In this document: positions 10,089 through 40,080 of the stretch, one piece after another
How positions within the stretch are numbered: the first letter of the stretch is position 1
Layout of the letters: the number at the start of each line of letters is the position of its first letter
Assembly: GCA_902806565.1 (NCBI GenBank)
Contig: CADCXA010000021.1
Location: 310,001 to 374,000, forward strand
DNA: 64,000 nucleotides
Direction of reading: 5' to 3'
From: Hypoxylon rubiginosum
Taxonomy: Eukaryota; Ascomycota; Sordariomycetes; Xylariales; Hypoxylaceae
Made by a program: the position numbers and the translations under genes
Notes under the pieces: model-generated
The model's database searches: none
Seen by the model: the letters and a program-made list of their open reading frames with translations, nothing else
What the model was told of the DNA's origin: nothing

Positions 10089-10110
10089 CTCCGCTGTAAA
10101 TTTACGCTAA

Positions 10111-10197
10111 ACCGCCAAAGTGACAAAAGTGCCAAGTTCGCCAAATCTGCTAAACCTGCCAAACCTGTAAAATGAGCTAAAACCATAGTATATATAA
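10111..10197 (+). repeat. Left terminal inverted repeat (87 bp)
   Basis: Aligns gap-free to the reverse complement of 38888-38974 with 79 of 87 matches. Left/right differences are G/A at 10122, T/C at 10138, 10148 and 10151, G/A at 10174, C/T at 10183 and 10184, and G/A at 10188. The outer part is G+C-normal and carries four 9-bp GCCAAAYCT-like iterations (10131-10166). The inner 20 bp grade into the A+T block. Confidence 0.9.
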
Positions 10198-10356
10198 TTC
10201 CCATATTATATAAATATATTAGGTTCTTAATAAATTAATATATTTTATTAATTTAAATTATAAAAAATATATAATAATTAATTATAATTATATTTAAATT
10301 TAAAATTAAATTTATTATATTTATAAAATATTTATAATAATATTTAAATTATTATA

Positions 10357-10488
10357 AAATTATTATTAAATTATTATTAAATTATTATTAAATTATAATT
10401 AAGTTATTATTAAATTATAATTAAATTATTATTAAGTTATAGTTAAATTATTATTAAATTATAATTAAGTTATTATTAAATTATATTT
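10357..10488. repeat. 11-bp minisatellite, left subterminal array (12 units)
   Basis: Twelve perfectly phased 11-bp units of the AAATTATTATT type, with variants AAATTATAATT, AAGTTATTATT and AAGTTATAGTT. It starts 160 bp inside the left terminal repeat. The strict phase distinguishes it from ordinary A+T drift. Confidence 0.9.
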
Positions 10489-13400
10489 AAAGTTTAAATA
10501 AAAAATATATAATTTTTATAATTTAAATAAAAAATTTAATTTATTAGTATTAAAAAAAATATAAGCTAGGTTTATTTATATATAAAGTTTTAATATTAAA
10601 ATAATATAATAGTTTTTTAATTTATAGTTTTATTATTTAAATAATAAGTTTTATATATATATATAATTAAATTTAAAAATTATATATTAAAAAATTAATT
10701 AACTTTTTCTTATAATTTATATAGTTTATTAGTTAAAATAAATTAAAGTTTTTATTATAATTTTAAAGATTTATTTAAAAATAACTAATTATAAAAATTT
10801 AAAATTTTAAGATATAAATTTATAAATATAAATAAAATAATTATTATAAATAAATATTATTTATATTTAATTTATTTTTTATTTAAATAAGTGTTAAATA
10901 AAAAAAAATATTAAATATTATATAAAATATTATTATAAGATATTTTATTAATAAGAATATTAATATTATAAAATAATAATATTATTATAAAATTATTTAA
11001 ATAATAAAAAAAATTAAAATATTATTATATAAAAAGTAATAAACTTAATAATTATAAACGTTTTTATATATATAAAAATAATAAATAAAAAAGTTTATTA
11101 AATAAAAAAATTTATTATATTTACTTTTAATATTTTTAATAATATAAATATTTAATATTATTATTTTAAAAGTTATAACCTTTTAAATAATAAAAGTTAA
11201 GTTTTTATAATAAAACTTTAATTTTAATAAATATAAAAAACTTTTAAACTTATATATTAATATTATAATAACTAATATTTAAAAAACCTTAATTTTAAAA
11301 AAATTAATATAAATTATTATAAAAAATAAATTAATAATAATTTAAATAACATTTTAAATTTTATATATTAAATATAAGCTTATTAAAAAAAGTTTATAAA
11401 AATAATTAAATTATTATTATATATATTTTTATAGTTTAATTTATAAAATATTTAAAATATATTTAAAATAAGATTTTCTTTTTATAATTTAAAGTAAATA
11501 ATTTAATTATAGTTTTATATATAATATATTTTTAAAAAAGTTTATAAAAACTAGATTATTTTTACTTATTATAATGTTAAATATAATATAAAAAAAAACT
11601 TTTATTATAATAAACTAAAAAAAGTTATATAAGTTTTAAAAAACTAATAAAATTAAAACTTTTAATAAATAAAAATAATAATTTTTATTACCTAGTATTT
11701 ATTTATTTAATATTTATTTACTTAAATATATATCTAAGTATTAATATTTTAAATAATAAAATAATATTTAGTAAATTAAATAAATATTTATTTAAATAAA
11801 AAATAATTAATAATCGGAATAATTATTTTTATTATTTTAACGGTTTTATATTATAAGTATATATTTAAAAAATAAGTAATTTATAATTATTATAAAAAAT
11901 AATATATAAATTTTTAATATTTTTTAAATTTATTTTTTTATTTTTAAAATATTTAATAAATAACTATATAATTATATTTATTTTGTTTTTATTTATTTTT
12001 TTATTTTATTTAATTAAACTATATATTATATTATCTTATTATATAAAAACTTATTAAATATTAATACTGGTTTTTTTTTATCCTTTTTATATTATTTTAA
12101 ATAATCTTTTAAATTAATATATTTATTAAAATATAAATAATCCTTATTTTTAATAAATTTTAATAAATATTACGTTAATTATTTATTATAAATCCATTAT
12201 ATTTCTAAGGTTAAAAAACTATTAAAATCATATTTATATATTAACTTTTTTAGTTAATATATTAATTTTAATAATAAAAAATTAAAAATTAAATTTATAA
12301 TATAATTTTTTACCCTTATATTATTTAGGTTTATTTAAAGTTTATTAATATAACTAGTAATTTTACTTTTTTATCGTTTAATAATATAAGTATTTTATAA
12401 ATAAATATATTAAGTTACTTTTTATTATAATAGGTTTTTAAAAATAATATATATTATAATTTAAATATAAAGTTAATACTTTTTAAATAAATTTAAATTA
12501 TATAAACTTTTAAAATATTATTAATAATATAATATTAATATTAATATTTAATAGTATAAATATTAATTTATTTATAATTTAACGATTAATTATATTAATT
12601 TAAAAAAAAAGCTATTATTATTTAATTTTTATATTATATTAATTTATATAAAATTTATATAATTTTAAAATACATATGTTTTATAAGTATTTTATTTTTA
12701 TTTTATTTATAAATTATATAATTATTTAAAACCTAGTTTATATAACTAATTAATATTATATTTAAATTATAAAAAAAGTTTTAATTTTATAATTTATATA
12801 GGTTATTTAAAGTTAAAATCTTAATATAATAATTATTTTAAAATATTAATTAGTTATATTTATAAATAAACTATTAGATTTATTAATATTATATTATATA
12901 ATTTTATAAAAATAAATATTAATATTTATATAGATTTTAAATTTAATAAAATGAAGTTTTTAATATTTATTTATATTTTATAATTAATTTAGTTTTAAAA
13001 TTAAAAGAAGTTTTTATTTTTTATTATAATAAATTTTTTTTTAATTATATTAATAATTTATAACTTTTAAATATATTTAAATATATTTAAATTAAATTAT
13101 ATTTTTAAAAATAAGTTATTTTATAATTATATATATTAGTTTATATATTAATTTTTTTTTTATATTTATTAATATATTTAATTTAAGTTTATAATTATAA
13201 TAAAACTTAATTATATTATTTTTATATTATTTATATTTAATTAAATCGGTAACTTTTTATTTTATATTATTTTTTAAATAAATTTTAATAAAAAAATATA
13301 ACTTATATTAATTTTTTTAATAAATTATAAATAATTAAAAATAGTTTTATCGTGGAAATTTATATAAAAAAAATAGTTTTATATTTATTTTTTTATTTTC

Positions 13401-13604
13401 TTTTTATATTTTATTAAATTATATTATACCGTATCTTATTACGCCAGTTTATATTAAAAGAAATATAATATTAAATTAATATTAAAATATTTTTACGTTA
13501 AATAATTAATAATTTTAAAATAAAGTAACTTTATTTTAAAAAATATAAATATATTTATTTAAATATTATTAATATTAATTTCATTTTTATTAAACTTTTA
13601 TTAG

Positions 13605-14590
13605 TTTAAATATTATTAAAAGATTTATATATTTATATAAATATTATATTTTTATTAAAGTTTTTTAATAATTTTTTAATAAGATAATTAATTTTTTTAA
13701 TATTATTAAGTAATAATTTCCTTAAATTTAATAAAGTTATATTAAGTTAAATATTAATAAAAGGTTTATAAAATAATATAAATATAATAATTTTTATAAA
13801 ATTTTTAAAGAATTATAATTTTAAATAGTTAGTTTTTTTTATATTAATAAATAAAAATCTTTTTTTATTAATTAAAGTTATATTTAATTAAATATTACTT
13901 TAAGGTTTTTTAGTTAATATAAATATTATAGTTTTATTATAATTTCTAAAAAATTATATTTTTAAAAAATTAATTTTTTTAATATCATTAAATAAAAATA
14001 TTTTTAATTTAACCTAAATTATATTTAATTAAATATTATTTTAAGGTTTTTTAGTTAATAAAAATATTATATTTTTATTATAGTTTTTAAAAAATTATAT
14101 TTTTAAATAGTTAATTTTTCTGGTATTATTAAATAAAAATAAATTAAAATTTAATAAGATTATATTTATTTAAATGTTAATTAAAAGTTTATAAGTTAAT
14201 ATAAACGTTATATTTTTATTTAAGTTTTTAAATAATATTAAGTTTAAATAGTTTTTTTTTTTAGTATTATTAAGTGAGAATTTTTTTATATTTATTAAAA
14301 TTACCTTTATTTAAATATAGTTTAAAAGTTTATAAAATTATATAAATATTATATTTTTATTAAAACTTTTAAAAGATTTAAATTTTAGTTAGTTAATTTT
14401 AACGGTATTATTAAATAATAATTTCCTTAAGTTTATTAAAGTTATAATTACGTTTAAATAAATATTATTAAAAGGTTTATATATTAATATAAATGTTATA
14501 TTTTTATTAAAATTTTTAACGGATTTTATTTTAAAATAAATAGTTTTATTAATATTATTAAGTAATTTAACTTTTATATAATTAAAGAGT
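13605..14590. repeat. Tandem repeat of about 141 bp, about seven copies
   Basis: The anchor GATTTAT/GGTTTAT recurs at 13622, 13764, 13905, 14046, 14187, 14328 and 14475, giving spacings of 142, 141, 141, 141, 141 and 147. A second anchor (TTTTTATTA) recurs at 13649, 13791, 13931, 14072, 14213, 14354 and 14501. Some copies also share AATTTCCTTAA. The period is 47 x 3 bp, suggesting a repeat-containing protein gene before RIP. The protein family cannot be recovered. Confidence 0.75.
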
Positions 14591-17584
14591 AATAAAAAAT
14601 AATATATTAATATTTAAATTTTAAGTATTTTAAATATAAAATATTAGTTATATGTTAATAATATTAAATTATATATAAATTAATTTATTAATTATTTTAT
14701 TAAAAAACCTTATTTATTTTAATTTATTTTATATATTATATATTATTATTTGTTTTTTTTTATAAGTTATTTTTCACTTTTTATAAATATAAAACTTTAA
14801 AAAGATTTTAAGTTTTAACTAGTTTTTTTTTTTTTTTTTATATTAATTAAATTATTATAATAAATATAATAAATAATTATATAAATAATAATCACTAGAT
14901 TTTACCTTAGATTTTAAACAATATATAATATCTATAAAATGTTTTTTTAATAAAGTTTTTAATATTAAAAAACTTTTATATTAATATTAATAATATAATA
15001 AAGTGTATTTTATTAAATAATTTAAAAAAGTAAATAACTAAATATATAAAATTAATTATAGGAAATTTCCTTGGTGATTTATTAAGTTTAATTAATAAGT
15101 TAATATTTTTAAATAACTAATTTTAATATTTATAAAATAAAATAAAAACATTTTTAACGCGTGTTAAATTTATAAATTTAATTAATTTAAAAGATTAATT
15201 AAAAAATATAAGCGAGTTTTTATTTTATATTAATAAGTTTTTTATTAATATTAATTTTACGATTAAATATATAAAATAGTTTTTTAATATTACTATAAAT
15301 TAGTTTAAATTTTTTTACCGGTTTAAATAAATTTTTTTATTATTAGTTTTTTAAGAAATTAAAATAATGGATTTTTATTATTATTTTATTATTTTATAAC
15401 TTTTAAAAATTATATTTAAGGTTTTTAATAAAACTTTAAAATTTAAAAAATAATATATTAAATATTTTTATTAATTATTATTATATAATAAAAAGGAATT
15501 TTTTAAGTTTTAATAAATTAATATAATAAATTATTTTTAATTATATTAAAAAAGGTATTTTTAACGTATATTTAACATTAAAATATTTATTTATATTTTT
15601 AGTTATAATAAATAACTTATTTTAATATAAACTATTAAAAACTTTTTATTTAAAAAATTATAAACTAAAAATTTATTTTTTATTATAATATAAACGGAAT
15701 TTTTTTTAACGGCTTAAAATAAAAATATATTTTTTATTATAATAAAAGTAAAATTCTTATTAATAGTTTAAATTAAGTTATTACTTTTTTTTAATAATAA
15801 AAAACTTTTTTTATAGGTTTTTTAATATTATTTTTAAATTTATTTAATTAAGTTATATATTTTTAATTAGTTATAATTATATATATTAATTTTTATATAT
15901 TAATTTTTTATATATTTTTTAATTTATATTTAATTTATTTTAAAAGTTATTTAAATATTAATATGTTATATATATTATTATTAATTTATTAAAAAAATAA
16001 AATATTATATAATAATTTTATATTTAAAAAAAGTATTTTTATTTAAATAATTAATAAAATATAACTAATTAAAATAAGTAAAATTATTAACCGTCGATTT
16101 TTTAACTTTATTTTTTTAATTTTAAATATATATAATTTTTTATTTTTAATATAATAATTTTATAAATAAAAATATATAATTTAATAAATTATTATATAAT
16201 ATAAATAATTTAGTTATTTTTTAATTATAATAAGAAATTATTTATAAAGAAATATAAAAAAAAATAAAAAAAAGTAGTTATTATTTTTATTAAATTTTTT
16301 TAATTATATAATTACTGATTTTTTTATATTATATTTTTATTTATAATAACTTTAATATTTTTATTTTTTATAACGTTTTTATATTAAGATTATTATTTAA
16401 AAAATAATTAATAAATAATATTTAATAAATATAAATATTAATTAAATTATTTTTATAAAAATATTTATAAATTTTTTAATAAAGGTTTTTATTTAATATA
16501 TTTATATTATTATTTATAATTTTATATTACAGTTATTAATTAATAGAAAAAAAAATATAAATAATATATTATATTTAATATTTAGTTTAATATACTTATT
16601 ATTTTTTATATTATAAATAATATAAATAATATAGTTTATATAATAAGTTTAAATATATTTATATAACTTTTTATTAACTTATAAAAAAATAAAATAATTT
16701 AAAATACACTAGTTAAAAATATATTAATTAAAAATATATTAAATAAAAGTATATTATAATATAATTATTTTAAAAATTTTAATATTATTAATAAAAATAT
16801 TATATATATATTTAATATTTTAAAGAAAAAAATAGTTATATATAAAAAAATAAAATATTTAATATATAACTGGTTTTAAAGTTAAATAATTTTATAAGTA
16901 AAAATTATTTTTTATATTTTTTTTATTATAAAAACTAGTGAGAAAATATTATATATATTAGTTTATAAAATAATTAATAGTAAGTTCGTGTAATTTATAT
17001 AATTTTTTATTTAATTAATATATAGATTTTAATAAAATATTAAGTTTAGGTTTTTTTTAAAAATAATAATTAACTTATATATTATTAGTTTTATAATAAT
17101 ATTTATTATAAATTTAATTTTAAATTATTTTTTTATTTTTAAAAAGCTAGGTATTTTTAGTTTATTTAATATTTCTAAATTTAAATTAAAAAACGTTTTT
17201 ATATAATAGAATTTTCTAATTATAAATTAATAATATTTAATGATTTTTATAATAAAAATATAATATTTTAATTTAAAATAATAAATATAAAAAAGAAAAT
17301 TTTTAAAGCTTATATAATAATATATAAAAAAAAGTAAAAAACTTTAAAATAAATTATTATATAGTTACTAGTTTTAAATTTATTTTTATTAAAAATAAAG
17401 TAAGCTTTTTAAAATAAATAAAAATATTAAAAGTTTTTTATATTAAAGTTATTATTTATATTATTTTTTTATTAAAGAAAAAAACTTATTTTATTATTAA
17501 TTTTATATTATTAATAAATTTATAAATAAGTAAAAAAAGTAAAGAAAAAAATAAAGAAGAAAATAAAAAAAAAATAAAAAAGGA

Positions 17585-17692
17585 GGTAAAAAAAAAGGTA
17601 AAAAAAAAGGTAAAAAAAAAGGTAAAAAAAAAGGTAAAAAAAAAAGTAAAAAAGAAAGTAAAAGAAAAGATAAAAAAAAAGGTAAAAAAGGA
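17585..17692. repeat. 12-bp GGTAAAAAAAAA tandem repeat (9 phased units)
   Basis: GGT, or its variants AGT and GAT, recurs exactly every 12 bp at 17585, 17597, 17609, 17621, 17633, 17645, 17657, 17669 and 17681. In the plus frame each unit reads Gly-Lys-Lys-Lys, as expected for a lysine-rich tail whose Glu/Arg/Gly codons drifted to A. The overlapping minus-strand Phe/Leu/Pro frame is an artefact of this repeat. Confidence 0.8.
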
Positions 17693-20600
17693 AAAAACAT
17701 TTATTTATTTATAGTTAATAAAAGAATAAAATATAAGATTAAATATTTTTATTAAAAATTTATTTAAAAATATAAAACTATTTAACCGTTTATTAACCTT
17801 ATTAATTTAATTATAAATAACCGTTTTATAGTTAAATATAAAACTTTTATTATATTAAAAAATTAAACTTAATATAAAAACTTTTTTACGTTAATTAATT
17901 AAACTAATAATAGTTTATAATATAACCTGATTTTAAATTATAAATATAATATTTAATAATATTAAATATTAAGTTTTTTTTTAATATAATTATTTTATTT
18001 ATATATAAAAATATAATATAAAAAAAAATTACTAATTTATATTTATATATATTTATTAAACTTTTAAATATTAATAATTAAAATATATTTTCTTTTTAAT
18101 TTAATAAACTATTTTATTTATTATATAATAATATAAAGTATATTAATTTTATAAAATTATTAGTTTTATTTATATAAAATTTATATTATAACGGTAAATT
18201 ATTATATAATTTTTTGATTTAAAATAAAAAAAAATAACTATATTAATAAATATTAATTAATTTTAAAAATTAAAAATCTAAATTAATTTATATAGTATTT
18301 ATTTAAATTAAATATAATAAAAATGGTAATAAAAATAATAATAATAAAAATAACGGTAATAAATATAATAAGAATAGTGAAATTAAAAATAAAATAATTA
18401 AAAATAAAAAAATTAAATATAAAAAGATTAAAAATAAATAATTAATTAAAGCTAAGGCTTAGTTATAAAATTATTAATAAAAACTTGTTAAAAATTAACT
18501 TTTAATTTATATTTATATGGATAAGTTATATAGCTAGTTATTTAAAATATTATAATTTTATTTTTATTTTATTTTATTTTTTAGATTTTTTTTACTATGT
18601 TTTTTATTAAAAAAATATAGGTTTATTTAATTTATTTAAGTATTTAAAATATAATTTATTTAATGTTAAAATGGTAAAAATAATTAAAAAATTATATTAA
18701 GAATTATATATAAATATATAAAAAATAATATAAAAAATAATATATAAAATTATATAAAATAATATAATAAATAATATAAGCGATATTAAAATAAAGTTAT
18801 TTATAATAACTATAAAATAAATGTTTTTTAATTTATTTAAATCCTTTATTTATTACTTATAAATATTTATAAAAAATATAAAGTTTTAAATTATTTTTTT
18901 ATAACTTTTATAACTTTTAAGTATTTTTAAAAATATCTTTTTTTTTTTTTATAAATTAAGCTATATATTTTAAACTTAAAATAATTATTTTATATATTTA
19001 AATAAACTTTTTACGTTTAATAAAAAATGTGTTATAAAAATTTAAACTTAATAATTTAAAGAGATAATTAAATTTTATTTTTATAATAAATACTTTTAAT
19101 ATTAATAAATATAATATATATATATATATTTACCAGTTAAATTATTTATTATTAATATTATTTATAGAAAATTTTTAATTAAAATATTAATTTTTAACAC
19201 TTAAAAAAACTATAAATTAACAGTAAATATATTTACTTTATTATTTATTAAGCGTATTATATTATTTATATTTTTATTTATATTATATATTAAAACTTAA
19301 TTATTATTAATAGGAGGTATTGTTTTATTTATAATATTATTAATTATATTTCTAGTTTTTTAAAACGTGTATTTATTTATTTATTTAATACCGTGATTTT
19401 ATTTATAATATAATCGTTTAAAATTTAAAACTTATTTATTATATAATAGTTTATAATTTTAATATAAATATTTATAATTTTAATATAAGTGTTTATAATT
19501 TTAATATAATTATTTAAAACTTAAAACTTGTTTATTATATAATAATTTATAATTTTAAGTTTATTAATTAATTAATTATAACTTTAAATAAATATTATAT
19601 ATATTTATATTTTATATTTATATATTTAAAGCTTATATTTAACTATTTATAATATAAAACATATTTAAAATTTTATTATTTTATTATATAATAAATAAAT
19701 TAACGTATTTTATAAACTTTTATAATAAAATTTAATAATTATTTATTATAATAATAAAATTTAACTGGTTATTAATATTTATTATAAAAATAAAATAAAA
19801 AGAATATAAGTTTAATTTAAAATAAGATATTTAAAAAAAGAATTTATAATGTTAATTAAAAAAAAAAAAAGTTTTTATTATATTTTATATATTTATTTAA
19901 TAATTTAATTTAATATAAATATATAAATATAATTTAATAAAGTTATATTTTTTTATATATTTATTTTAATTTAATTAGTTACTTTTATTACTAAAAATAT
20001 AATAAATATTTTTTTATAATTTAAAAAATATAAAAATTATTTGTTTTTTACCATTAAAATCTTATAATCTATAAATTTTTTTTTTTTTTAAAATATATAT
20101 TAACATTTAAAATTTAACCAACTATATAAATATAATTTAAAAAACGTTATTATACGCGGGATTTTATATATATAATATAATATATTAAACATTATTATAA
20201 AATAAGTTATTTTTTAAAAAAAAAAAAAAGTTAATTAATTATTTTATAATTATATAAAAAATAAAAAATTTAAAAGGTATCTAGTAATTATAAATATATT
20301 ATTATAATATAAAAATATATGTTTAAAATAAAACCATTATTTTTAAATAAAACTTTTATTAATATATAATATTATTAAAAAAGTTTATAAAAAAAATAAA
20401 TATATTAATATATCCGTGATTTTATATACTTTTAAATTAATTAATCTTACTTTTTTTAGTTTTAATATAAAAAATAATATAAATATTTTTAATTAATTAA
20501 TACCGTAATAAGAAAAATAAATATATTAATAAAAGTTTAATTATTTAGTTTTTATTTTTAATAAAATTATAATTTTAATAAATACTAATTATTTTTATTT

Positions 20601-21140
20601 TTAACTTTAGGGTATTTTATTTTTTTTTATAGTTATATTAGTAAAAGATATTATATAATTATTAAATATTTTATATTTAAGTTTTATTATTTAGTTATAT
20701 TATTAATTTATTATATAACTTTATTTTTATTAAATTTTATTATATTTATTAACCTTTTTTAGTTTTTATAGGATTTTTTTAAGTATTTTTTTAGTTTTTT
20801 AATATTAATAACATTTTAATTAACTATTGTTTTTTTTATTTTATTTTATATTATTAATATAAAATAAGTTACCACGCTTATTTTATTAACTAGTTTAGCT
20901 TTTTAAATTTTTTATTATATTTTTTATTATTATAAAAACATTTAATTTTTATTTTTAAAAGTTATATTTTTAGTTTAAAGTATAAAAATCTATGTGTTTT
21001 TTAATATTTTATAATTTTAATATATAAAAGATTATAAGTATATATTTTATTTTAATTATACTTATAAAAATATTTTTTTTTATTAATTATAAAATTTTTT
21101 TAAACCGTAATTTTTTTATAATAAAAAAAAAATCTATTAC

Positions 21141-21345: not shown

Positions 21346-21783
21346 TATAAAAAAATTTTAACTAATTAAATTAACAATAAAACCTTAATTTTAAAAATTA
21401 AAAAAACTTTATAAAATATAAATAATTTAATATATAAGTTAAAAGTTAAATATTATTATATTAATATATATTAATATATATAAAATATATTATAATATTT
21501 TATTTTAATTTATTTAACTAAATTATATATTTTATTTTTTTAAATTTATAATGTTTTAAACATTTAAAATATTTATACTATGTTATTTAATATTATTTTA
21601 AAACGTTAATTTAGTTTTATCTTTTTTTTAAATATAAAAATATCCGATATATAATCTAAGGATAATATTTTTTTTAAAATTAATTTTATATTAATAAGTT
21701 TTTTTTTAATAATATCGTTTTTATTATTATTATTTAAATTAAACCAGGAATTAACTATCGTTTTATTATTATTTAAAAAAAGG

Positions 21784-21893
21784 TTATTTATTTTATTTAA
21801 ATATAATATATTTAATTTAAAGTTTAATAAAAGACTTTTTATTTTATTTAAATATAATATGTTTAATTTAAGGTTTAATAAAAGATTTTCTGT
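21784..21893. repeat. 51-bp tandem duplication
   Basis: Two close copies of a 51-bp unit start near 21791 and 21842 (TTTTATTTAAATATAATAT then TTTAATTTAA.GTTTAATAAAAGA). They differ mainly by transitions. The period is a multiple of 3. Confidence 0.7.
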
Positions 21894-24800
21894 TTTATTA
21901 TTTAATAATTATTTTTTTATTTTATTGTTTAATAATAAACTTTTTTTTATATTATTTAATAATATAATTAAAATTTAAAATACTAAATCTTTATTTTTTT
22001 AATATATTTTATTTTTTTAATATATTATAACTTTTAAATTTATTATAAAATAAACTAAATATATAAAAAAAGTATAAAAGTTTAATATAAATAAAACATT
22101 TAATATTTTTTTTTAATAATTAAAACTTAAATTTAATAATATTGTTTTTAACGATAAGTTTTTTAATAAAAATAATTATAATATACTAATAATAATTTTA
22201 AACGTTATTATAAAAACTAAATAAATATATAATTAATTTAAAAGGTTATTATTAAAAATATACTATAAAATAAAAACGATTAAATTTAAAAAAACAATAT
22301 TAATTAAAAAACTTATATTTAAAAAACTTAAGTTAAATAATAATTTAAATTAAATAAGTAATTAATAAAAAAAGTAAAATAAAAATATAAAAATAAATAT
22401 TATAATAAAAAAAGCTGTTATTTAAAAAGTTTATTAAAATATAATATTTAATAATTATATTTATATAAGTTAAAATTTAATTAAAAAAATTTTAAATTTA
22501 TTTATATTTAAACGCATTTTTCCTTTTTCCGATAAAGTTATTAAAAAAATATAATTTAATTTATAGAAACTTTTTATATTAATATTTAATATTATTTTAA
22601 AATTATTAATATATAAAGTTATAATATATATATTATAATTAAAGTTTAATAAAAACAATATATTTATATATATATTTATTAAAATTATATATAATAAAAA
22701 AGTTTTATTTATTTAGTTTTTTATAAAATTAAAAAGTAACGGTTTTAATAAATGTTTTATTAATTAAGTTAAAGAAAATTAAGTTATTATTAACTTAATA
22801 ATATATATTAATTTAATAAGGATATTTAATAATTAATTATAAAATATATTAAATATTAATAAATTTAAACTAAATATTATTATATTTAATTTTATTTTTA
22901 ATAAAATAAATACGCGCTTTTATATTATATAATAATAAATATAAAATAACGTTACTTTTTTTTATGTTTATTATATCGATATTTTTATTTTAATAAAAAA
23001 AAAAAAATATAAAAACCTACGTATAATAATTTTTAATATTATTTATTAAATAAAAAAGAAAAGTTATATTTTATTAACAGTTATTAATTATATAATAATA
23101 TTATAAATAATAACTAATATTTTATTAATATTATTTTTTTTATTATAACGTAAAAAATATTTTTATAAAAATAATTAAATATTTTAATTTTAATTTTTAT
23201 TAGTTTTAAATAAGCTTTTTACTTTATTATAAAATTTAACTTTTATAAAAAAACAGCCAGTAAAATATTTTTATAAAAATACGTAGGTATTTTAACTTTT
23301 ATTATTTATAAATAAATTATCTTATTTATTATAAAGTTTAACTTTTATTAAATTATAATTAATAAAACGTTCTTTTAAACGTTTATTAATATTTTTATTT
23401 TTAATGGTTAAAAATAAATTATATCGCTTATTATAAGGTTTAATTTTTATAAACCTAATAATATCACCGTTTAAATAATAAAAAAAACGTTTTTTTAAAA
23501 ATACACCGACGTTTTAATTTTAATTACTTATAAATAAAAAGTTAAATTTAATTACTATAAATAAATATTAAATATTTAACCGCTTATAAAATAAAATACT
23601 TTAAATATATAAATATAATTAAAAAACTTATAATAAAATTAAATAAAATAAAAGCTTTTTATAAATTAAATATTAAAATAATATATATTATAAAATTTTT
23701 AAAAGTTTTTATAGTTATTTTTATTAGCTTAATTTATTTATAATAAAATTATTTATAATAAGGTTATTTATATAAAAATAATTTATATTTAATATAATAT
23801 TTATTTTTAAATCTTTTATTAAATCTTTTTAATAAGTTATTTTAAAATAAATAAAAAATTAAAAAATTAAAATGTTATATTAAAATAATCTTTAATTAAT
23901 TAAAATAAATTGTTTTTTTCTTTCTTTTTTTTTAATTTTTCCTCTTTTTTTTTTCTTTAATTATTATAAAAAATAATATTAACGTTAATAATAAAAGTAT
24001 TATTTATAATAAAAACATATTTAAAATAACTATTTATTAAAAAAATAGAATTTATAATACCTTATTAATCTTTAATAATTAATAATATTATAATATTTTT
24101 TTAATATAAATAAGGTATTTATAATAATTTTAATAAAATATATTAACTTTTATTTTTTTTATAATATTAATATATTTATAATTTATTTTTACTAATTATA
24201 TATTTATTTAAATTTTTTTTTATTAGTATTTAATATATTATCTATTAATAATAAATAATTAAATAAAAATAATACCTTTTTATAACTTATTATAATAAAG
24301 TTTTTTTAGTTTATAATATATATAATTATTAATTTAAATTATTATTTTATTTTTATTAAAATGTTAAATATTTAATTATAATTATAATATTAATTAATTA
24401 AAATAAATATATAAAATACTGGTATTTATTTATAATTATAATATACCACTTTTTTATAAAAAAACTACTATTTATAATAATTATATATAAAAACTATTTT
24501 TTATATATTTTTTTATAATTAAAATTAATTAAAATTATAATTAAAATTATTATTATTAATTACGCCGTTTAAAACCTTTTTATCTCCTTATAATTAAAAA
24601 GCTTTTTAAATCGTAATATACTTTTTTTAAAATAACTATTATTTTTTTTAATGGAATTGTTTTTTTTATTATTACTTTTTTTTTTTTTTATATATTTAAC
24701 GTAACTTTTTATTATAAATATTACTTATTTAAATTAAAGAAAATAATTAATTATAAAAAAAAAAAAAGAAATATTAATAATTAAATATATAAAATTAATT

Positions 24801-27800
24801 ATAGTTAATTTACTTTATAAATTATTAATTATTATTAAATATTTAATTAATTTAATAAATTTTTTTTATATTTTATAAAAAACAATAAAAATATTTATAA
24901 TAAATATAAAAAATATATTAAAAAATATATCTTTTAAAAAGCGTGAGATTAATTTTATTAGTAACTATATAAAATAAATATATTATATTTTAATTAATAT
25001 AAAACATTTTATTATAATAATGTTTATTATTATATAATTATTATATATATTATTAGTTTTTTTTAATTTATAATTAAAAGTATTTAAAGGTTTTAATTAA
25101 ATTTATTTACTTTTTAAGTTTTAAAAATCTAAGGTAAAAATAATTTTTTAACATTTATTTATTTATAATTTTCTATTTAATATATATAATATTTTTAATA
25201 ATATATTTAGTTTTAAAAAGTAAACTATAAAACATTTTTATTATTTAATATTATATAATAAAAAATGGTTTCTTTAAAATTAAAAAAAAAGAATAATAAT
25301 TATTACTTTTTTTAAAATAAAAAAAAAAGAAGTTAAATATATATTTTAAATATTTATTTTTTATAATTTTAATAATTATAATATTTAATTAATCTTTGTT
25401 TAAATTACTAAGTTATTTAGTTTTTTAAAACCTTAATAACTTAATAAAAATATTAAGTTTAAGTTTATAATAAAAATATTAACTGGATTAATAAAAATAC
25501 CACTTTTATTTATAATTAATATAAAATTTATAAATAAATTAAAAATAATAAATATTAAAACCTTGTTATTTATAATTAGTGTAAAGTTTATAAGTGAAAT
25601 AAAAGCGATATATAATAAGGATTTAATAATTATAATTAAAATAAAAGTAATATTTATTTTAATATTTTATTAAGTTTTATTGGTTTTAATTAATAAAAAA
25701 AGAAACGTTTATAATAATAAAAATAAAATATAAATAATTATTTAACGCGTGGGTAAATTTATTATATATATTATTAATATATTATTTTAATATTAAACTA
25801 ATTTTTATATTAATTTAAAAAGTTATATATTTATTTTATTTTTAAGTATATAATATTTCTTAGTTATTTTTATTAAATAAAGGAGAAAAACTATAAAAAT
25901 AATAAAAAAAAACTAACTAGTATATTTATTTATTTATAAATAAATTTTTAATTTAAATTAAATAATCTTTTTATTTTATTTAAATTTATTATATAAAATA
26001 AATATATTAAACTAAACACCAAGAAAATGTTTAAATATAAAATAAATATAAAAAGCAAATAAACGTAACTTGTTTAATCTTAACTACTTTTTATTAAACG
26101 ATTATAAAAACTCTTAAAATATCCTATAAAAAGAAAACGTTTAATAAAACTATATTTTTAATATTACGATTATATACTAACTATACTAAAAAAAAAATAA
26201 ATAATATCTTAAAAAAAATCCCGTAAAGATTTTCCTTTAAATATAAGGTATCTATAAAATATCACGTGCTATTCTTATAAAGTAACTAATATTTATAGCA
26301 CTAATTCAATATATATTTAATTTATTTATATAAATAAAATATATATATTTTAATTTAAATATAAAAACGTTTAATTTATTTAATAATATTAATAATTTAA
26401 TTTTAAATATAAATCTTAGTTTAAAAAAAAGTTATATATTAATAAAACTTATATAAAAATAAATAGTTTTATTTAATTAAATTATTAAAAACATATAAAA
26501 GCATATAAATTAATAATTATATATATAATAATATTAATTTAAACGTTTAACTTTTAAAATATTTTAATATTTAGTTAATTTATTTAATTTTTTATTATTA
26601 TAATTATTTAATTATAATTTATTATTTTTATATTTTAATATTATTTTATATTTTTTTTACGTTTTTTTATCTTTTTTTTTTTCTTTTAATATAAGTTTTA
26701 ATAATAAGTTTAATAATAATAAATTTGATATTTTAACTATAATTAATTATATATAAACCGGATTTTATAATAAAATATAAAATATAAACTATAAATAAAT
26801 TTATTAATATAATAATTTTAATAATAAAGTAAAATATTTTATTTATAATAAGCACTTTTATTAAAATATTAATAATAACTATAAAAAAAAAATAAAAATA
26901 TAATAAATATTATAAAATTTATTATTATTTTTATTTTAATTTAAAATCTATATATTTATTATTTAATATTATATTAATAAAAATAAAAGAATATTTATTT
27001 AAATGTTTAAATAATATAAGTTTATTTATTATTTATTAAAAAAATTATTTAATATAATTAAAAATAAGCTATATAAATATTAAATTAAATAAATATTATA
27101 TATATTTAAATTATTTTTTTTAAAAATATATTATTATTAAATTATATAATAATAAACAGTAAATAATTAATAGTAACTAAATTATAATATTTATAAAATA
27201 TTTTAAAAAAAAAAAAAAAGCTTTTATTTAGTTTTAATTATTAAATAATTTTATAAAAATATAAAATATATTAACTAGTTTTTATATATTTTAATTAAAA
27301 ATTAAAGGTTTTTTAACTAATAATATATATAAAGTTTATATTATAATATTTATATTATATATTTATAAATTATAAAAAGTTTATTATTTTTTATTTTTTA
27401 TTATATTTATATTAAAAATATTAACTTTTTTAAACTAGTTATTTTTAAGTTAATTATTATTAAACTAGTTATTTTTAAATTAATTATTTTTATTAAATTA
27501 ATTATTTATATTAAGTTAATTTTAATTATTAACTTTTAAATTTAAAAATAAAATAATATATTATATAATAACTTAATATATATATTTTTATTAATATTTA
27601 TTAAAAAATTTTATTTAGTTTAAATAAAACTATTAATTATATTAATAAAGGTTATAATTATTTTAATATAATATATATTTTATTAAAAAAGTTAATATAA
27701 AAAGAAATTTTTAAATTAGTTAATAATAATAATTTTAATTTACTTTTAATTTAAAAAATATTTATTAGTTATTAAATAAATAAATTTACTTTTTAAGTTT

Positions 27801-29257: not shown

Positions 29258-29578
29258 TAAATTTATTATATTTTAATATAAATTACTTTTTATTTTTAAT
29301 ACACTTTTTTATTTAATAAAAGTTTAATATATTAATATTTAATTTATAATTTTAAAAATATATTATAAATATTTTTAACATATTAAAATAATAACGTTTA
29401 AATTATTTATTAAAACTAGTAATAATAAAAATAATATAGTATTTTTTTTTAATATATATATTAATTTTTATATATTTAAAAATTAAATATTAATAAAATT
29501 AATAAACGTAAAAAATATTTTAATTATTTAAAACTTTTATTTTAACTATAAATATTTTTATGGTATTTAAAATTTTTT

Positions 29579-29633
29579 AAATTATTATTAAGTTATTATA
29601 TAATTATTATTAAGTTATTATTTAATGTTAATT
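29579..29633. repeat. 11-bp minisatellite, internal array (5 units)
   Basis: Five phased units (AAATTATTATT, AAGTTATTATA, TAATTATTATT, AAGTTATTATT, TAATGTTAATT) in the same orientation as the subterminal arrays. Confidence 0.75.
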
Positions 29634-30351
29634 TAGTTATTTTTTAGTTATAATTAATAAAAATAAAACTTATTTTAAATAAAAATTTTATTGGTTAAGT
29701 TTTTATAAGTTAATTAATATTAGTTTTATTATTAATTAATAATATTTAATTAACTTTTTAAAGTAAAAAAAACATATTAAAAAAAGTTATAAATTTTTAA
29801 ATATATTTATAAATTAAAATACTAGTAAATATTATAATAACTTAATAATAAATAATATACTAATTATTATAATATTTTTTATTAATTAAGTTTTAGTTTT
29901 TTAATATAATAATAATATATAAATTAAATTAAAACTTAATTAACATTTAAAAATTAATAAATTATAAAATATATAATTAAAATTATATTTAAATTTAATA
30001 TTATATATAATATTATTTTTAAAATTAAAAAAAGTGTAAATATATTAATAATTATATAAAAGATTTTAATTAATAATTATAATTTTAAAAATATTAATAC
30101 GATTTTTATATTAAAATAAATATATAAATTATAATTAAATAATAATTTAATTAAAATTAAGTAATAGTTAATAAATATAGTTAATTTATTATTAACTTTT
30201 TTTATATTAACTAAAAAATTTATTATTAAAAACCTATAAAATATTTTTTAAATGTTAGTAAAATAAATATTAATTAAATAATATAATGTTTTATATAAAT
30301 TTATTTTTATAAAAAATTAATATAATATATAATTTTATTATAAGTTTAAAT

Positions 30352-30417
30352 AAACTATTATTAAACTATTATTAAATTATTATTTAACTATTATTTAATT
30401 ATTATTTAATTATTATT
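30352..30417. repeat. 11-bp minisatellite, internal array (6 units)
   Basis: Six phased units (AAACTATTATT twice, AAATTATTATT, TAACTATTATT, then TAATTATTATT twice) in the same orientation as the subterminal arrays. The retained C at unit position 4 marks the less mutated state. Confidence 0.85.
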
Positions 30418-33400
30418 TAGTTTAACTTATTAATATTAATTAATTATAATTTATAAAAACTTAAAGTTATTATAATAAACTTAATTATAAATTAATTTAA
30501 AGTTAAAATATAAAAGTATTTATATTTCTAGTTTTATATTAATTAATTAATAAATTAAGCGTATAAATAAAGTTTTTATAATATAATAAAAAAAAACTTT
30601 TTATTATTAAATAAGTTTTATATATTTAAAATAAATAATATTTTATTTAAATATTTAAAAAATAATAAGTTTATTATTTAAATAATTAAAAAATAATAAT
30701 TATTATATTATATTAAAATGTTTAAAAAATTAAAAATTAAAAAAAAAGAAAAAAGTAATAAAAATAAAATAATTTTAACATTTAATTAAATATTAATACC
30801 TTAAACGTAAATTTAATTAATATTAAATAATAGTTTAAATAAAATTAATTATAATAATTATATTATTAGTTTTTAACTAGCGCCGAATAATAACTTAATT
30901 AAAGTTAATTATAATATTAATTTTATTAAGTTAAAAAAATTTAAATCTAGTAATTTTTTATATTTTTAAATACTAGTAATATTAATAAATTTTATTATTA
31001 AATTATATTTAATAAATAACGTTAATTATATATTAATAAATAGTTAAAATAAATATAATATAGTTATTATTTAACTAAGTAATTAATTAATAGTTTTTTA
31101 ATAATTAAATATTATAATAAATAATAATAAGCTTAAAAATAATAACGATTATTATTTTATAAACTTATTATTTTTATTGGAAATTAAAATTAAAATTAAA
31201 AATAATAAAACTAAAATTAATATTATTAAAAATGGTAATAATAGCTTTAAAAATAATTTAATAACTAATAAAAATGGCGAGGTTATTAAAAATATAAAAA
31301 CTAGATTAATAGTGGTTAAATAAAAGTTAAAAAATAAATTAATAATAATTTAATAATAATAGTTAAATAAAAGTTTAATAACTATTATTAAAAAACTTAA
31401 AAAGAAAAAATATAACTTATTTATATCGCTTAATAAATAATAAATAATTAAATATTAAATTAAAAATATAAATATATTTACTTTTAATTTAAGTAAATAT
31501 TTTTTATATAAATAAATTAAATATTAATATAATAAATTAATTTATTTATATATTTATTAAAAATTTATTTATATTAAAAGTTATATTAATTTATTTTAAT
31601 TTTTATATAAATTTATATAGTTTTTACTATTATTAGTTTATTTATTAATAGTTTTTTTTTTTATAATAATAAATGTTATAATTATTATAAATAACAACCG
31701 ATTAAAAATTATTAATTATTATATTTATTATATTTATTAATTATATTAATTAATATAAAAATAACTTTATATATATGTTTATATTAATTATATATTATTT
31801 TAAAACTTTTTTAATATAATAATTATTTATTTAATTATATTTAATATATAATATTTTAACTAATAAATTTAAATCCTATAAAAAGTTATATATATAATTT
31901 ATTTTTTTAAGTTTAATTTATTAAAATAAAACCTTAAAAATATATTTTTTTTTATATATTCCTTTCCCTTAAAATATTATAACTAAAAAAAGTAATATTT
32001 TTATTTAACTTTTAAAACTTATTTATAATACTATTAAATATAAAATAAGTAACATTAAAATTTATATTTATTTTAATATTAATATTATTAAACTTATTAT
32101 TATACTTTTAAACTTATTTATATTTTTTATAATTTTTATTATTTTTTAAATTAAAAAAACGCTTTTTATAAATATTTAAATTATATAAATACTTCTAATA
32201 ATTATTAAACTTAAACTTAAACTTATTAAATATTAATATTTTATCGTTTTAAATAAAATAATTATTATTATTAACTAGATTTAAATTATATATATATTTA
32301 TTATTTTTATTTATAAATTAACTATAACTTTTTTTAAACTTTAATATAAATTTATTTTAAATTTTATATATATTTTTATTATTATTATAAACTTATATTA
32401 AATAATAGAAATATAATATAAAAATAATATATATAGTTTTTAAATAAAAAATATTCCATGTAAAATAATTAAAAAAAAACTTAACTTTAACATTTAAAAA
32501 ATCTTAATAAATATAATTATAATATATTATATATATATTATATAAATATCTTATATTCGATTTAATAATTTTAAAAATAAAAATATATTAATTATTTAGT
32601 TTTTTTAAAATAATAATAAGCTTTTTATAATTAAATATATAATAAATATTATTATAAAAAAAAAGCATATTATTTAAATTATTAATAAATTTATTATCAC
32701 TTAATATTTTTACGTATTATTTTATATAATTAATATTAAATTATAACTTAGTTTTTTTTAATATTAAATATATTGTTTTTATTTTTATATTATATTATAT
32801 AACCCGGTAAATTTTATTATAATTAATAATAATTATATAATTAATTAAATTAGTTAATAAAGAAATAAATATAAATATAATAATAACTTATTAAACAGTA
32901 AAAAAAAAAATGTTAAAACGGTTTTTATTAATATATTAAAAAAGTTAATAAAAACGTTATTTAAAAATATAATAAAATATAATAAAAAAGTATTAAAAAT
33001 ATAAAAAAACTACTAGTTATTAAAAGAAAACATTATAATATATAACTTTAAATTTATTATAATTAAAACTTAAAAATATAAAATAAATATAAAAATAAAC
33101 TTATATAATTAAAAATATAAAAATAATAAATTCTTTAAATAATAATATTATTAGTTGTTAATAATATAATAATTAAAATAAGATTAATATTTTAAAAGCT
33201 TTTAAAATATAAAAAATATAAAATATTTTTATTAAATATATTATTATAAGGTTAAATGTTTTTAATTATAATATAATAAATATATATTATAAAGTTATAA
33301 TTAATATTATTATAATTTAAAATAAAGAAAAATAAAAATGGTTTTATATATTTAAAGTAACTAGGATATTTAATATTAATTATTAGTTTTATAATAAAAT

Positions 33401-36400: not shown

Positions 36401-38479
36401 CTAAAAAAAAATAAGTTTTTATAACTTATTTAAATTTTATATTAAAAAAAAAGGTTAACTTTTTTTTAAAAAAAATATATTTTTAATAAATAAAATAGTT
36501 AAAATAAGGTTAGTTTTAATAAAAAAAAAGGTTAAAGGATTTTTTAAAAAAATCTTTAAAATAATATATATTATTTATTATAAGTTAATAATATTTAATA
36601 TTAATTAAAATTATAATTAAATAAAGCGATTATTTATATTAAATAATATATATTAATTATTATTATTTAAGTTTTAGTTTAAGTTTTAATAAATAAATTA
36701 AAAATATTAAGTTATTTAATTTAATGGTTTTTAATATAATATTAATACTTTTTTATAAAATAATATTTTTATTATTTTAAAAAAATTTAATAAGCGTTTT
36801 AATTTAGTTTTTTAATATTTAGTTAAGTTTTTTTTATTATTATTATTCTTAGTTTAATAATAAAAATAATATATATTTTCTTAAAAATTAAAAATTTTAA
36901 AGTTTTTAATAAACTTTATTTATTAATATAATTAGTAGATTTTATTAAACTTATTTAAAAAAAAATTATAATATAAAAATATATTTTTATTTTATAAAAT
37001 AAGTCGCTAAAAAAAAAGTATATTATTATATTAATTATATATATAATAATATTTATAATAAAATAAAAAAAATCTTTAATTTTAATATATATTATTTAAA
37101 ACTTTAAAATTCTTAAAAAGTTTATTTATATAATAAATAAAACACCTTATAATAAATATATTTAATTAAATTATAATAAAAATAAAAAAATAAAAAAATC
37201 TAAAAAAAAATAAAGTAAATAAGTAGTAGGAGATAAAAAAAAAACAAATAAAAAAAAAAATAAAAAGATATAATAATTAAAAAAAAAGAAGAAAAAAAAA
37301 GAAAAATAAAAATATATAAAAATAAAAAATAAAAATAACTTTTTTTTATATATATATATATATAAATATAAATATATTATTTTATAATTATATATATAAA
37401 TTAATATTTATTATTTATTTTTATTAAAATATATACCTTAAAATTATATAACTATAAGTTATAATAACTATAAATAGTTATTTAATATTTAATTTTTTTT
37501 AATTATATTTTTTTTTTTATAATTTTAATAACCGTAAAAAGTATTTATTTTTATTTAAATAATCTTTTTTAAAGTTATAATAATAAAAACTTAATATAAA
37601 AAAACTTATTTAATTTAATTTATTTATATAATAAAATATTTAAAAACTAAATAACTATAAATTAATTAAATAATTAAATATTAAATATATATAAATTAAT
37701 ATATAAAACTATAACTTTTATATTTTAATTTTAAAATAATTAAGCCTTTTTATAAATTTTTTTTATAAACTAATAAAAACTAAAAATTAAATAATAAATT
37801 TTAATAACTATTTATAAATATAAATTATATTTATTTTATAATTTATATATAACTATTTATAATATTTTTAACATATTATTTTAAATTAAAATTATTATAT
37901 TTTCTTATAAATCTTTTTTATAAATAAAAAGAAATTATAAATTAATTAGTTTTATAAAAATTTTAATAATAAATAATAAATTCTTATAATTATATTTAAT
38001 TAAAAATCACTTAGTTATATTTTTAATATATAAATATTTTATAATTTTGTTTTTTTTTAAAAGTTAATTTTAAATATTTAATTATATATAAAACTATATT
38101 TTAAGTTATATTTTCTAGGTTTTTTATTTTTTTTTTTATTATATTTAATTTTATATTAATTATATTTATATATATAAATAAAAAATTCTTTATAAAATTA
38201 AAAGATTTTTATTAAAATTAAATAAAAAGCTTAATAATTAATATTATTAAATAAAACTTATTTTATATAAATTTTTAATATTAATTATATTATAATTAAA
38301 TAAAAAGCGATAAAATAAAATAATAAAAAATAAAATTAAAAAATATAATATAATTAAAGTTTTAATTAACTATTAAAATTATAATAATAACTTATAAAAC
38401 AAAAAAAACTTAATATATAATTTATAAATATATTAATTAATATTAAAAAAATATATATTTATTTATTTTTTTTATAATA

Positions 38480-38721
38480 TAATAATTATTTAATTATTAT
38501 TAAACTATAATTAAAATATTATTAAATTATTATTAAATTATTATTAAATTATTATTAAATTATTATTAAATTATTATTAAATTATTATTAAATTATTATT
38601 AAATTATTATTAAATAATTATTAAATTATTATTAAATTATTATTTAATTATTATTAAATTATTATTTGGTTATTATTAAACTATTATTTAATTATTAATA
38701 AGTTATTACTAAGTTATTATT
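38480..38721. repeat. 11-bp minisatellite, right subterminal array (22 units)
   Basis: Twenty-two phased 11-bp AAATTATTATT-type units end about 165 bp inside the right terminal repeat. The orientation is the same on the plus strand as the left array, so these arrays are direct and not part of the inverted termini. Confidence 0.9.
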
Positions 38722-38887
38722 AAATTAAAAATATATTATAATTAAATTATTATTATAATTAATAATTTTTATTTTAATTTTTTTATTATATTTTATATAT
38801 TATTATTAATTTATATATTTTTTATAATTTAAATTAATAAAGTATATTAATTTATTAAAAACTTAATATATTTATATAATATAAAAG

Positions 38888-38974
38888 TTATATATATTAT
38901 AATTTTAGCTTATTTTACAGGTTTGGCAGGTTTGGCGGATTTGGCGGACTTGGCACTTTTGTTACTTTGGCGGT
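38888..38974 (-). repeat. Right terminal inverted repeat (87 bp)
   Basis: Inverted partner of the left repeat. Its 9-bp units (read on the minus strand: GCCAAGTCC, GCCAAATCC, GCCAAACCT, GCCAAACCT) are closer to a clean iteration than the left copy. Just outside, GGCGGTTT (38970-38977) and AAACCGCC (38982-38989) can form an 8-bp stem with a short loop. Confidence 0.9.
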
Positions 38975-40080
38975 TTTTTGTAAACCGCCAACGGTCCTGC
39001 AGGCACAGAGCCGAGTGAATATGTGGCTGTGCCTTCCGTATATTCGGCTAGCCTGCCAGCTTTTCCCCGTCCCGCCAACACGGTTGGTGATGCCAAGGCC
39101 TTGGCATGGCCTATTAATAAGTCCACCACGTGGGACCCTTACCCATCACAGCCTTAGTAAATATTAGAGTCAGGTAGTCGCGCTATGTATTTTGGAGTAT
39201 CTTAGGCAGATACTAAAGCTACCGGTATCTAGTAAATAGCCTCAACTGAGAACTTTTACGGACATCATTTTTCGCAACCTCCCTACGGATAGGCACCCAC
39301 CAATTCTATATCGCGGCAGTCTATATAGATGATAAGACAGGGATAGTTCATCTGTCCTAGTCCAACACAGCACTCTCGCACTTTGCGGTGGGCTATTTCT
39401 CTTTGCCTCATTTTATTGCTGACACTAGAGAACAACATTATACGGATCCCGGCCAACAGCTCGGTTTGAGCCCCAGAATTCAATATTTCATACCTAATTG
39501 GCTAGATTTCATAGATGCGTTCTTTAAGGTCAAGTTGGATGGGGTAGAGCTTTCCATGAGATTTCAATATCTGGTTCGGGTGTTTTTCGCTACTTGGCAT
39601 TCGGTCGTTTTTCGTGGAACTTGTATTGAGCCAACTTTTCATACCCCAGAGGACTGTATAACACGATAGAATAGAAACCAATTCTCTGAATTAGGGGAGC
39701 ACGTTGCCCAAAGGTCCGGAATACACCTACATATCGTGCTCTCAAAATGGAGTGCATATGACCAACTACCTTGGTATGATATAGCCTCATGCATGTATTA
39801 TTATACGAGCCACACATATCACAAAATAGGATGCTCAATACCTACCTTACACCGCCGATTAACTCTACAAGAAATACTCTTGTCCGATAGCCCAATCAGT
39901 CTGGGTGTAAACATGCCTCATAGTGAAGATTATAACCAAGGCTTGTAACTAGATGAAAACAGGAGATGAGTCCGACTAATAGACTTCGTTAGTTACCACC
40001 CTGTTTTGAAGTTGGTGCTTAAAAGGTAGATTCATTGGTAGATTTATATGTAAGATTTAGGTCAAGGCTCTCGTCCCTGC

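What the first reader, a model, noticed from the sequence alone, without database searches (positions are those of the whole stretch)
10089..38995. A 28.9-kb element with 87-bp terminal inverted repeats, interior erased to A+T
The edges of a long A+T block coincide on both sides with an 87-bp inverted repeat aligning gap-free with only eight differences, all transitions. This turns an apparent AT isochore into one bounded mobile element far larger than ordinary fungal TIR transposons. The motif-rich ends match no element I can name.
Basis: partly seen in the sequence, partly recalled or inferred. Interest (0 to 1): 0.85.

Follow-up and report, generated by a model that had tools for sequence, protein, structure and literature searches.

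The report
Giant transposon family erased by RIP
This A+T-only block is one of some thirty dead copies of a 29-kilobase jumping element in a Hypoxylon-like fungus; the fungus's own mutation defence has wiped out its genes, so we can show that it moved but not yet say which enzyme moved it.

Summary
The finding holds and is stronger than stated. The A+T block (6.7% GC) is one unit, 10089-38996 (28,908 bp), with a 186-bp gap-free imperfect inverted repeat at its ends (161/186 identical) and a flanking 5-bp target duplication (CTGCA). The termini occur at 26 left-type and 26 right-type sites in the host genome; 17 of the right-type sites pair with a left-type site in inverted orientation, 13 of these at 28.5-29.0 kb. 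An internal 1.1-kb probe matches 32 places at 88% or more. Thirteen of 17 tested pairs have an exact 5-bp duplication, all different; none of 272 mismatched pairs does. So this is a multicopy DNA transposon, not an isochore and not a target-specific Starship. The A+T content is mutational: copies differ by 7.8% transitions and 0.19% transversions, and mutation fades over the outer ~150 bp, as expected of repeat-induced point mutation (RIP). Purine/pyrimidine codon signal suggests several former genes. Pfam read-through named none; a protein-primed polymerase profile built from viral contigs found none. The transposase superfamily is unassigned. Best reading: a giant DDE/integrase-type transposon; Polinton-like and non-autonomous versions remain open.

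The parts
10084..10088 (.). left 5-bp target-site duplication CTGCA
   Evidence: equals 38997-39001; 13 of 17 copy pairs exact, 0 of 272 non-cognate pairs
10089..38996 (+). the whole element, 28,908 bp, 6.7% GC
   Evidence: 25 of 25 left ends printed begin here; 23 of 24 right ends printed stop at the equivalent of 38996
10089..10274 (+). left terminal inverted repeat (186 bp, imperfect)
   Evidence: 161/186 identical to the right end, gap-free; one search reports the 174-bp core 10101-10274 / 38811-38984
38811..38996 (-). right terminal inverted repeat
10106..10182 (+). array of short GCCAAA-type repeats at about 9-bp spacing in the spared part of the left terminus (candidate binding sites, inferred)
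   Evidence: best self-match at period 9, 57%
38903..38971 (-). the same ~9-bp array in the right terminus
   Evidence: best self-match at period 9, 59%
38967..38991 (-). perfect 10-bp hairpin TTGGCGGTTT-ACAAA-AAACCGCCAA at the right end only
   Evidence: DNA fold -11.5 kcal/mol, z -5.1; the left end does not fold
10253..10502 (.). 11-bp tandem array next to the left terminal repeat
38331..38759 (.). 11-bp tandem array next to the right terminal repeat
   Evidence: families D1, D13
13545..14566 (-). 7.2 copies of a 141-bp (47-codon) repeat; RY-codon signal on the minus strand at 13579-14583 (335 codons, 19.7 bits)
   Evidence: the repeat itself inflates periodicity, so coding is likely but not proven
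16526..17914 (+). segment with RY-codon signal (463 codons, 17.1 bits), includes the 12-bp array 17532-17689
   Evidence: signal partly from the array
21349..23088 (+). segment with RY-codon signal (580 codons, 22.4 bits), no Pfam match
24711..25913 (+). segment with RY-codon signal (+ 13.7 bits, below the best null; overlapping - strand segment 16.0 bits), in the probe stretch that matches diverged relatives elsewhere in the genome
30610..31497 (+). segment with RY-codon signal (296 codons, 19.5 bits)
31973..33139 (+). segment with RY-codon signal (389 codons, 22.8 bits); strand uncertain (19.6 bits on minus)
38997..39001 (.). right 5-bp target-site duplication CTGCA

Best explanation
A giant (28.9-kb) DNA transposon family with inverted-repeat ends. 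SHOWN: copies of one defined length sit at unrelated sites; most tested insertions carry a 5-bp duplication of differing target sequence; the copies compared were nearly identical apart from transitions; the copies read are saturated with C-to-T and G-to-A changes that fade about 100-150 bp inside the end. INFERRED: a DDE/D-type transposase or integrase recognised the ends, probably through the ~9-bp repeat arrays in both terminal repeats, and joined both ends to target strands 5 bp apart. The element probably carried its own transposase among the several genes whose codon rhythm survives. RIP then recognised the copies as repeats and destroyed them, so the family is probably extinct in this strain. 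The transposase superfamily is not identified.
For: Unit and ends: 25 of 25 left ends printed start CTCCGCT; 23 of 24 right ends printed have the same outer boundary. Copy number: 26 + 26 terminal sites, control 0; 32 places (window included) at >=88% over 1.1 kb of interior among 39 scored, 29 at >=85% over 1.2 kb among 40 scored. Transposition: 13 of 17 pairs with exact 5-bp duplications of different sequence, 3 more with one mismatch, 0 of 272 non-cognate pairs exact; no two of 21 left flanks share more than five 20-mers. RIP: medians of 7.8% transitions against 0.19% transversions over 21 copies; unmutated fraction 0.98 at the outer 20 bp against 0.24 inside, 18 copies; flanks average 44-51% GC. 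Former genes: 3-base rhythm in purine/pyrimidine space; five places exceed the best of 20 Markov nulls.
Against: No transposase or other named domain was found, although the control shows that this test clearly detects only strongly conserved domains (1 of 3). Two of the five coding-like places contain tandem repeats whose period is a multiple of 3. One of 17 pairs (C67) has no duplication. Nine of 26 right-type sites have no left partner at the pattern's stringency. The outermost two bases differ between the two ends (CT/GA), unusual for DDE elements (recalled). Copies of 34-45 kb between matching ends show nesting or rearrangement that I did not resolve. Target sequence is not wholly even: G in 10 of 21 left flanks at -5, C or G in 15 of 21 at -1.
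Confidence: 0.65

Rival explanations
1. A Polinton/Maverick-like, self-synthesising element: tens of kilobases, inverted repeats, integrase-made short duplications, with its own protein-primed DNA polymerase.
For: Size, long terminal repeats, several genes and a 5-bp duplication fit (family traits recalled). Repeat arrays plus a terminal hairpin could serve replication (inference).
Against: A RIP-blind profile of polymerase-motif ORFs from viral contigs gave 25.7 bits, no better than its reversal (27.6), while 24 of 25 held-out members scored 53 bits or more. A motif-trio scan was not above the null (24.7 against 23.5-30.6 in 16 shuffles). Limits: a single such polymerase as query recovered only 3 of 11 others well, so a distant eukaryotic polymerase could be missed; the genome search for DNA_pol_B_2 found none but its control rang nowhere. 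The ends are not 5'-AG (recalled).
Confidence: 0.14
2. A giant non-autonomous or composite element: captured genes between ends that were mobilised by an ordinary transposase encoded elsewhere in the genome.
For: No transposase signal was found inside. A precedent for large fungal carriers with inverted repeats exists (PMC9594970, passages).
Against: Thirteen pairs of nearly one length (28,544-28,986 bp; ends) and 18 of 18 compared copies collinear over 8.4 kb (three outlier copies left out beforehand) suggest a stable self-contained unit. No shorter two-ended relative with the same ends appears among the sites listed.
Confidence: 0.15
3. A Starship moved by a tyrosine-recombinase captain (DUF3435).
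For: Large size in a Pezizomycotina fungus. One intact-looking DUF3435 gene exists in the genome (C10:594225-595539).
Against: Orthologous captains target particular sequences (PMC12289983, passage); here 13 duplications are all different. No DUF3435 signal by read-through, a test of limited power.
Confidence: 0.03
4. Not an element: an A+T isochore or centromere-like block, or an assembly artefact, with coincidental edges.
For: Extreme composition. By their coordinates at least seven copies run off contig ends (C16, C17, C30, C34, C35, C51, C59), so assembly is difficult there.
Against: Exact shared ends, one length, and cognate duplications at many sites.
Confidence: 0.01

Closest known systems
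Polinton/Maverick
   Same: size range, terminal inverted repeats, several genes, short target duplications (family traits recalled)
   Different: no protein-primed polymerase detected; duplication 5 bp rather than the usual 6 and termini not AG (recalled)
Ginger2/TDD-4, TDD-5 (Gypsy-integrase-like DNA transposons)
   Same: TDD-4/TDD-5 make 5-bp duplications; Ginger2 terminal repeats are about 50-180 bp (PMC2836005, passages)
   Different: Ginger1 elements are 2.6-7 kb in the same paper, against 28.9 kb here; no rve domain found by read-through; two Gypsy-like polyprotein queries gave only noise
Starships
   Same: giant multi-gene elements of Pezizomycotina (15-700 kb, PMC12289983, passage)
   Different: varied 5-bp duplications instead of a captain's preferred target; long inverted repeats; about 30 near-identical copies; no DUF3435 signal
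ToxhAT and the 294-kb 'Icarus' of Pyrenophora (PMC9594970, passages)
   Same: large fungal segments, the latter with terminal inverted repeats
   Different: those are nested in, or classed as, Starships; this one is a uniform multicopy family
RIP-saturated repeats of Ascomycota
   Same: transition-dominated decay, CpA and TpG depleted
   Different: composition is very low (about 5-9% GC in the copies read), and the fade-out at the repeat edge can be measured over 18 copies

Membership tests
[quoted passage not shown]
   186 bp, 161 identical
[quoted passage not shown]
   13 of 17 exact 5 bp; 0 of 272 controls
[quoted passage not shown]
   no Pfam match in six frames read through; control clearly positive in 1 of 3
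Polinton/Maverick | protein-primed DNA polymerase B | tested here: inconclusive
   no match with a viral-contig profile that finds 24 of 25 held-out members; motif scan not above null; distant eukaryotic forms not covered (single-query control weak)
Polinton/Maverick | retroviral-like integrase | tested here: inconclusive
   rve not seen by read-through Pfam; Gypsy-like queries noise
Polinton/Maverick | capsid and packaging ATPase genes | not tested
   no query sequences at hand
Starship | DUF3435 captain as first gene | tested here: inconclusive
Starship | insertion at a preferred target sequence | tested here: not met
   13 different duplications; only mild base bias at -12 to -1 in 21 left flanks
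LTR retrotransposon | direct terminal repeats and reverse transcriptase | tested here: not met
   terminal repeats are inverted; two Gypsy-like polyproteins score 31.2 and 29.1 bits, near shuffled (25.8, 28.9) and reversed (29.4, 26.7) queries
RIP (as the cause of the A+T content) | repeat-restricted transitions with CpA bias | tested here: met
   CpA 0.24 and TpG 0.27 of expected; transitions 7.8% against transversions 0.19%; flanks largely spared

The most novel reading that the evidence does not exclude
A new superfamily of giant, multi-gene, non-Starship DNA transposons in filamentous ascomycetes. It moves as a 29-kb unit by a DDE/integrase mechanism with 5-bp duplications, using iteron-like 9-bp arrays in both ends and a one-sided terminal hairpin, possibly with its own replication (Polinton-like). 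It has gone unseen because RIP erases its genes wherever it multiplies.
Probability: 0.27. Interest if true: 0.8.

Novelty: new variant of a known kind. Interest (0 to 1): 0.58.

Why it matters
Giant fungal transposons are at present discussed almost only as Starships. This family of about thirty copies, many of equal length, uses a different integration chemistry, and it shows that a large A+T 'isochore' can be a single dead transposon with exact boundaries. The ends are sharp enough to search other genomes for a living relative. The copies also give a natural measurement of how RIP fades at the edge of shared homology: from 24% of informative sites unmutated inside to 98% in the last 20 bp.

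Tried and rejected
Starship, isochore, LTR-element and assembly-artefact readings were tested and rejected or put low (see rivals). Six literature searches gave no paper, in the listings seen, on a ~29-kb inverted-repeat element with 5-bp duplications in Pezizomycotina; the library lacks most subscription journals, and I read passages only.

Gene identity: Pfam read-through of ten segments and of all six frames gave nothing better than E 0.14; most of these weak matches lie in the 12-bp array. The simulated-RIP control found 1 of 3 host genes clearly, one marginally (E 0.046), and missed one. A RIP-blind Smith-Waterman (protein against purine/pyrimidine codon classes) worked on a control: six of the 120 listed homologues of a host gene scored 257-471 bits against at most 22.4 for the runner-up frame. 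Its power falls with distance: one polymerase as query scored 110-167 bits on 3 of 11 other polymerase loci and 25-42 on the other 8. Against the element, 641 ORFs from 56 viral contigs gave 38.2 bits at best, the same as shuffled queries. A 23-bp piece of the right end is absent from viral contigs.

Codon phase of retained C/G among copies showed clear 3-base rhythm only at the 141-bp repeat and none in the central stretch, so it did not confirm the other coding segments.

C9:713103 first looked like an un-mutated relative. Its interior proved to be a common LTR-type repeat inserted about 100 bp into the terminus.

Dropped rows: the copies L028, L036 and L042 are outliers (median transversions 21.5%, 1.4%, 16.1%; cause not examined) and were left out (18 of 21 copies used). 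In one search one of 18 pairs had no recognisable right flank; the pair C51:355507-384652 was found later and not fetched.
Full report
WHAT WAS CLAIMED. The window is G000:C21:310001-374000 of a 48.3-Mb, 70-contig assembly. The best match of a flanking gene (4721-5896) is Hypoxylon rubiginosum at 93% identity, so the host is a Hypoxylon-like fungus (Xylariales); the exact species is not known.

THE OBSERVATION. Inside is 6.7% GC, the flanks 51% and 50%. The inverted repeat is in fact gap-free from the first base for 186 bp: 161 identities, 19 transitions, 6 transversions, all transversions within the outer 20 bp. The right end is 38996: the outermost base is G in most copies printed and A in a few.

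IT IS A MULTICOPY UNIT. A 202-bp left-end query gave 62 candidate places, of which 40 were scored: 25 left ends and 15 right ends. The right-end query gave 438 candidates, 40 scored. A 35-bp pattern search with up to 3 mismatches found 26 left-type and 26 right-type termini, the window's included, and none for the reversed control patterns. Pairing these lists, 17 of the 26 right-type sites have a left-type partner on the same contig in inverted orientation: 13 at 28,544-28,986 bp (median 28,702), one at 29,146 bp, and three at about 35.0, 37.4 and 45.1 kb. A further pair with more mutated ends (C41) spans 34.4 kb. I take the long ones as nested insertions (inference). Nine right-type sites have no partner at this stringency. 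One left-type site (C25:435293) and one right-type site (C19:328988) are short fragments in ordinary DNA. A 1.1-kb internal probe (31.7-32.8 kb) matched 32 places at 88% or more among 39 scored; a second (21.4-22.6 kb) matched 29 places at 85% or more among 40 scored. Both counts include the window, and both lists are capped.

IT TRANSPOSED. For 18 pairs I compared the five bases outside each end; one right flank could not be found. Of the 17 left, 13 are identical (CTGCA, GGAGC, GTTGG, GCGTC, AATTG, CATAA, CGCCG, TAAGA, GATCG, GGTAC, GTCCG, CCGAC, TATTT), three differ at one base (two by a transition), and one (C67) does not match. Among 272 non-cognate combinations none is identical and one differs at one base. 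No two of the 21 left flanks examined share more than five 20-mers; base bias at the target is mild (G in 10 of 21 at -5; C or G in 15 of 21 at -1). A fixed 5-bp duplication of varied sequence is the signature of strand transfer by a DDE/integrase-type enzyme (established knowledge) and does not fit a site-seeking tyrosine recombinase.

WHY IT IS A+T. Over the first 4 kb of 21 copies the interior is 4.6-9.2% GC; the median pairwise difference is 7.8% transitions and 0.19% transversions. CpA and TpG are at 0.24 and 0.27 of expectation. The union of retained C or G over 18 copies covers 28.7% of 8,400 columns, and a Chao-type lower bound for the original GC is 34%; the central 4 kb of 8 copies gives 23.0% and 34.8% (three outlier copies left out of the first). 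Mutation fades towards the left end: among columns where at least one of 18 copies keeps C or G, the mean unmutated fraction is 0.98, 0.92, 0.91, 0.79, 0.56, 0.42 in successive 20-bp steps, 0.51 at 120-160 bp, then 0.22-0.25 (the choice of columns biases the interior value upwards, so the true drop is larger). Flanks average 44-48% GC in the first 500 bp and 51% beyond; one or two of 21 are below 25% in the first 100 bp. This is RIP acting on the repeat and weakening at the edge of homology (interpretation). The low transversion divergence means the copies were nearly identical when they spread.

WHAT IT CARRIED. RIP makes only transitions, so purine/pyrimidine codon patterns survive. Three-base rhythm is present in several places. 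With codon classes from host ORFs, five places exceed the best of 20 Markov nulls (16.7 bits): 31973-33139, 21349-23088, 13579-14583, 30610-31497 and 16526-17914. Two of these contain tandem repeats of 141 and 12 bp, multiples of three, which inflate the signal, and the phase of retained C/G confirmed rhythm only at the 141-bp repeat. The stretch 25-26 kb has the best-supported diverged relatives elsewhere in the genome; three of them show 149, 101 and 157 transversions at the three phases (sums), modest support for a plus-strand frame. Chance alignments between A+T blocks reach 66-68% identity here, so weaker relatives are not counted.

WHAT IT IS NOT, OR NOT SHOWN TO BE. Pfam read-through found nothing credible in six frames; the control recovered one of three host genes clearly, so weak domains would be missed. 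A RIP-blind aligner, strong on close homologues and weak on distant ones, found no match to two Gypsy-like polyproteins or to 641 ORFs of 56 viral contigs. A profile of polymerase-motif ORFs gave 25.7 bits against 27.6 for its reversal, while 24 of 25 held-out members gave 53 bits or more. In the genome at large the family searches gave no DNA_pol_B_2 (whose control rang nowhere), two rve matches, one over the cut-off, in frames that look Ty3/Gypsy-like by eye, and DUF3435 in one intact-looking gene at C10 plus a degraded match at C60.

HOW IT PROBABLY WORKED. Both termini hold an array of GCCAAA-type repeats at about 9-bp spacing, next to 11-bp arrays, and the right end alone has a perfect 10-bp hairpin (-11.5 kcal/mol, z -5.1). 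I infer that the arrays bound the transposase or a replication protein. The unit was then cut or copied and joined at staggered nicks 5 bp apart. The family multiplied to about thirty copies before RIP silenced it. A terminus on C9 carries an inserted LTR-type repeat that is not A+T-saturated in the 65 bp read; the same 70 bp recurs in twelve same-strand pairs 5.6 kb apart at 91-94% identity (not read). So a younger repeat family has escaped this degree of mutation (inference).

KNOWN KINDS. Sizes, ends and duplications resemble Polintons (recalled); TDD-4/TDD-5 also make 5-bp duplications (PMC2836005, passages). Starships carry a captain tyrosine recombinase that targets particular sequences (PMC12289983, passages). 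None can be assigned: the superfamily is open. I file it as a new variant of a known kind (a giant inverted-repeat DNA transposon) rather than as a member of a named family.

Noticed in passing
G000:C19:328988-329019 (L070 51-82): A 32-bp, one-mismatch copy of the right-end hairpin stands alone in ordinary DNA: a footprint, filler insertion, or the source of the end.
   Followed up: partly
G000:C25:435293 (L127): A perfect 35-bp left terminus followed within 67 bp by DNA of ordinary composition: a solo end fragment.
   Followed up: partly
G000:C9:713205 onward (L128): An LTR-type repeat (twelve same-strand pairs about 5,625 bp apart, 91-94% identical to a 70-bp query) is not A+T-saturated where read, suggesting that RIP is weak or lost now, or that this family is recent.
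   Followed up: partly
G000:C46:92253, C25:1399657, C24:939602 (L067-L069): Diverged A+T relatives of the 25-26 kb stretch (12-14% transversions), so further families of such elements may exist in this genome.
   Followed up: partly
window 127-2862 (-) and 4721-5896 (+): Neighbouring genes look like an ergosteryl-aspartate synthase (fused aspartyl-tRNA synthetase, recalled) and an ergosteryl-aspartate hydrolase (name given by sources to some homologues).
   Followed up: no
G000 contig ends of C16, C17, C30, C34, C35, C51, C59: By their coordinates, copies of the element run off contig ends, so these A+T units are likely breakpoints of the assembly.
   Followed up: no
G000:C40:465448: A right terminus with a transversion in its fourth base (GACG instead of GACC), listed; not read.
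   Followed up: no
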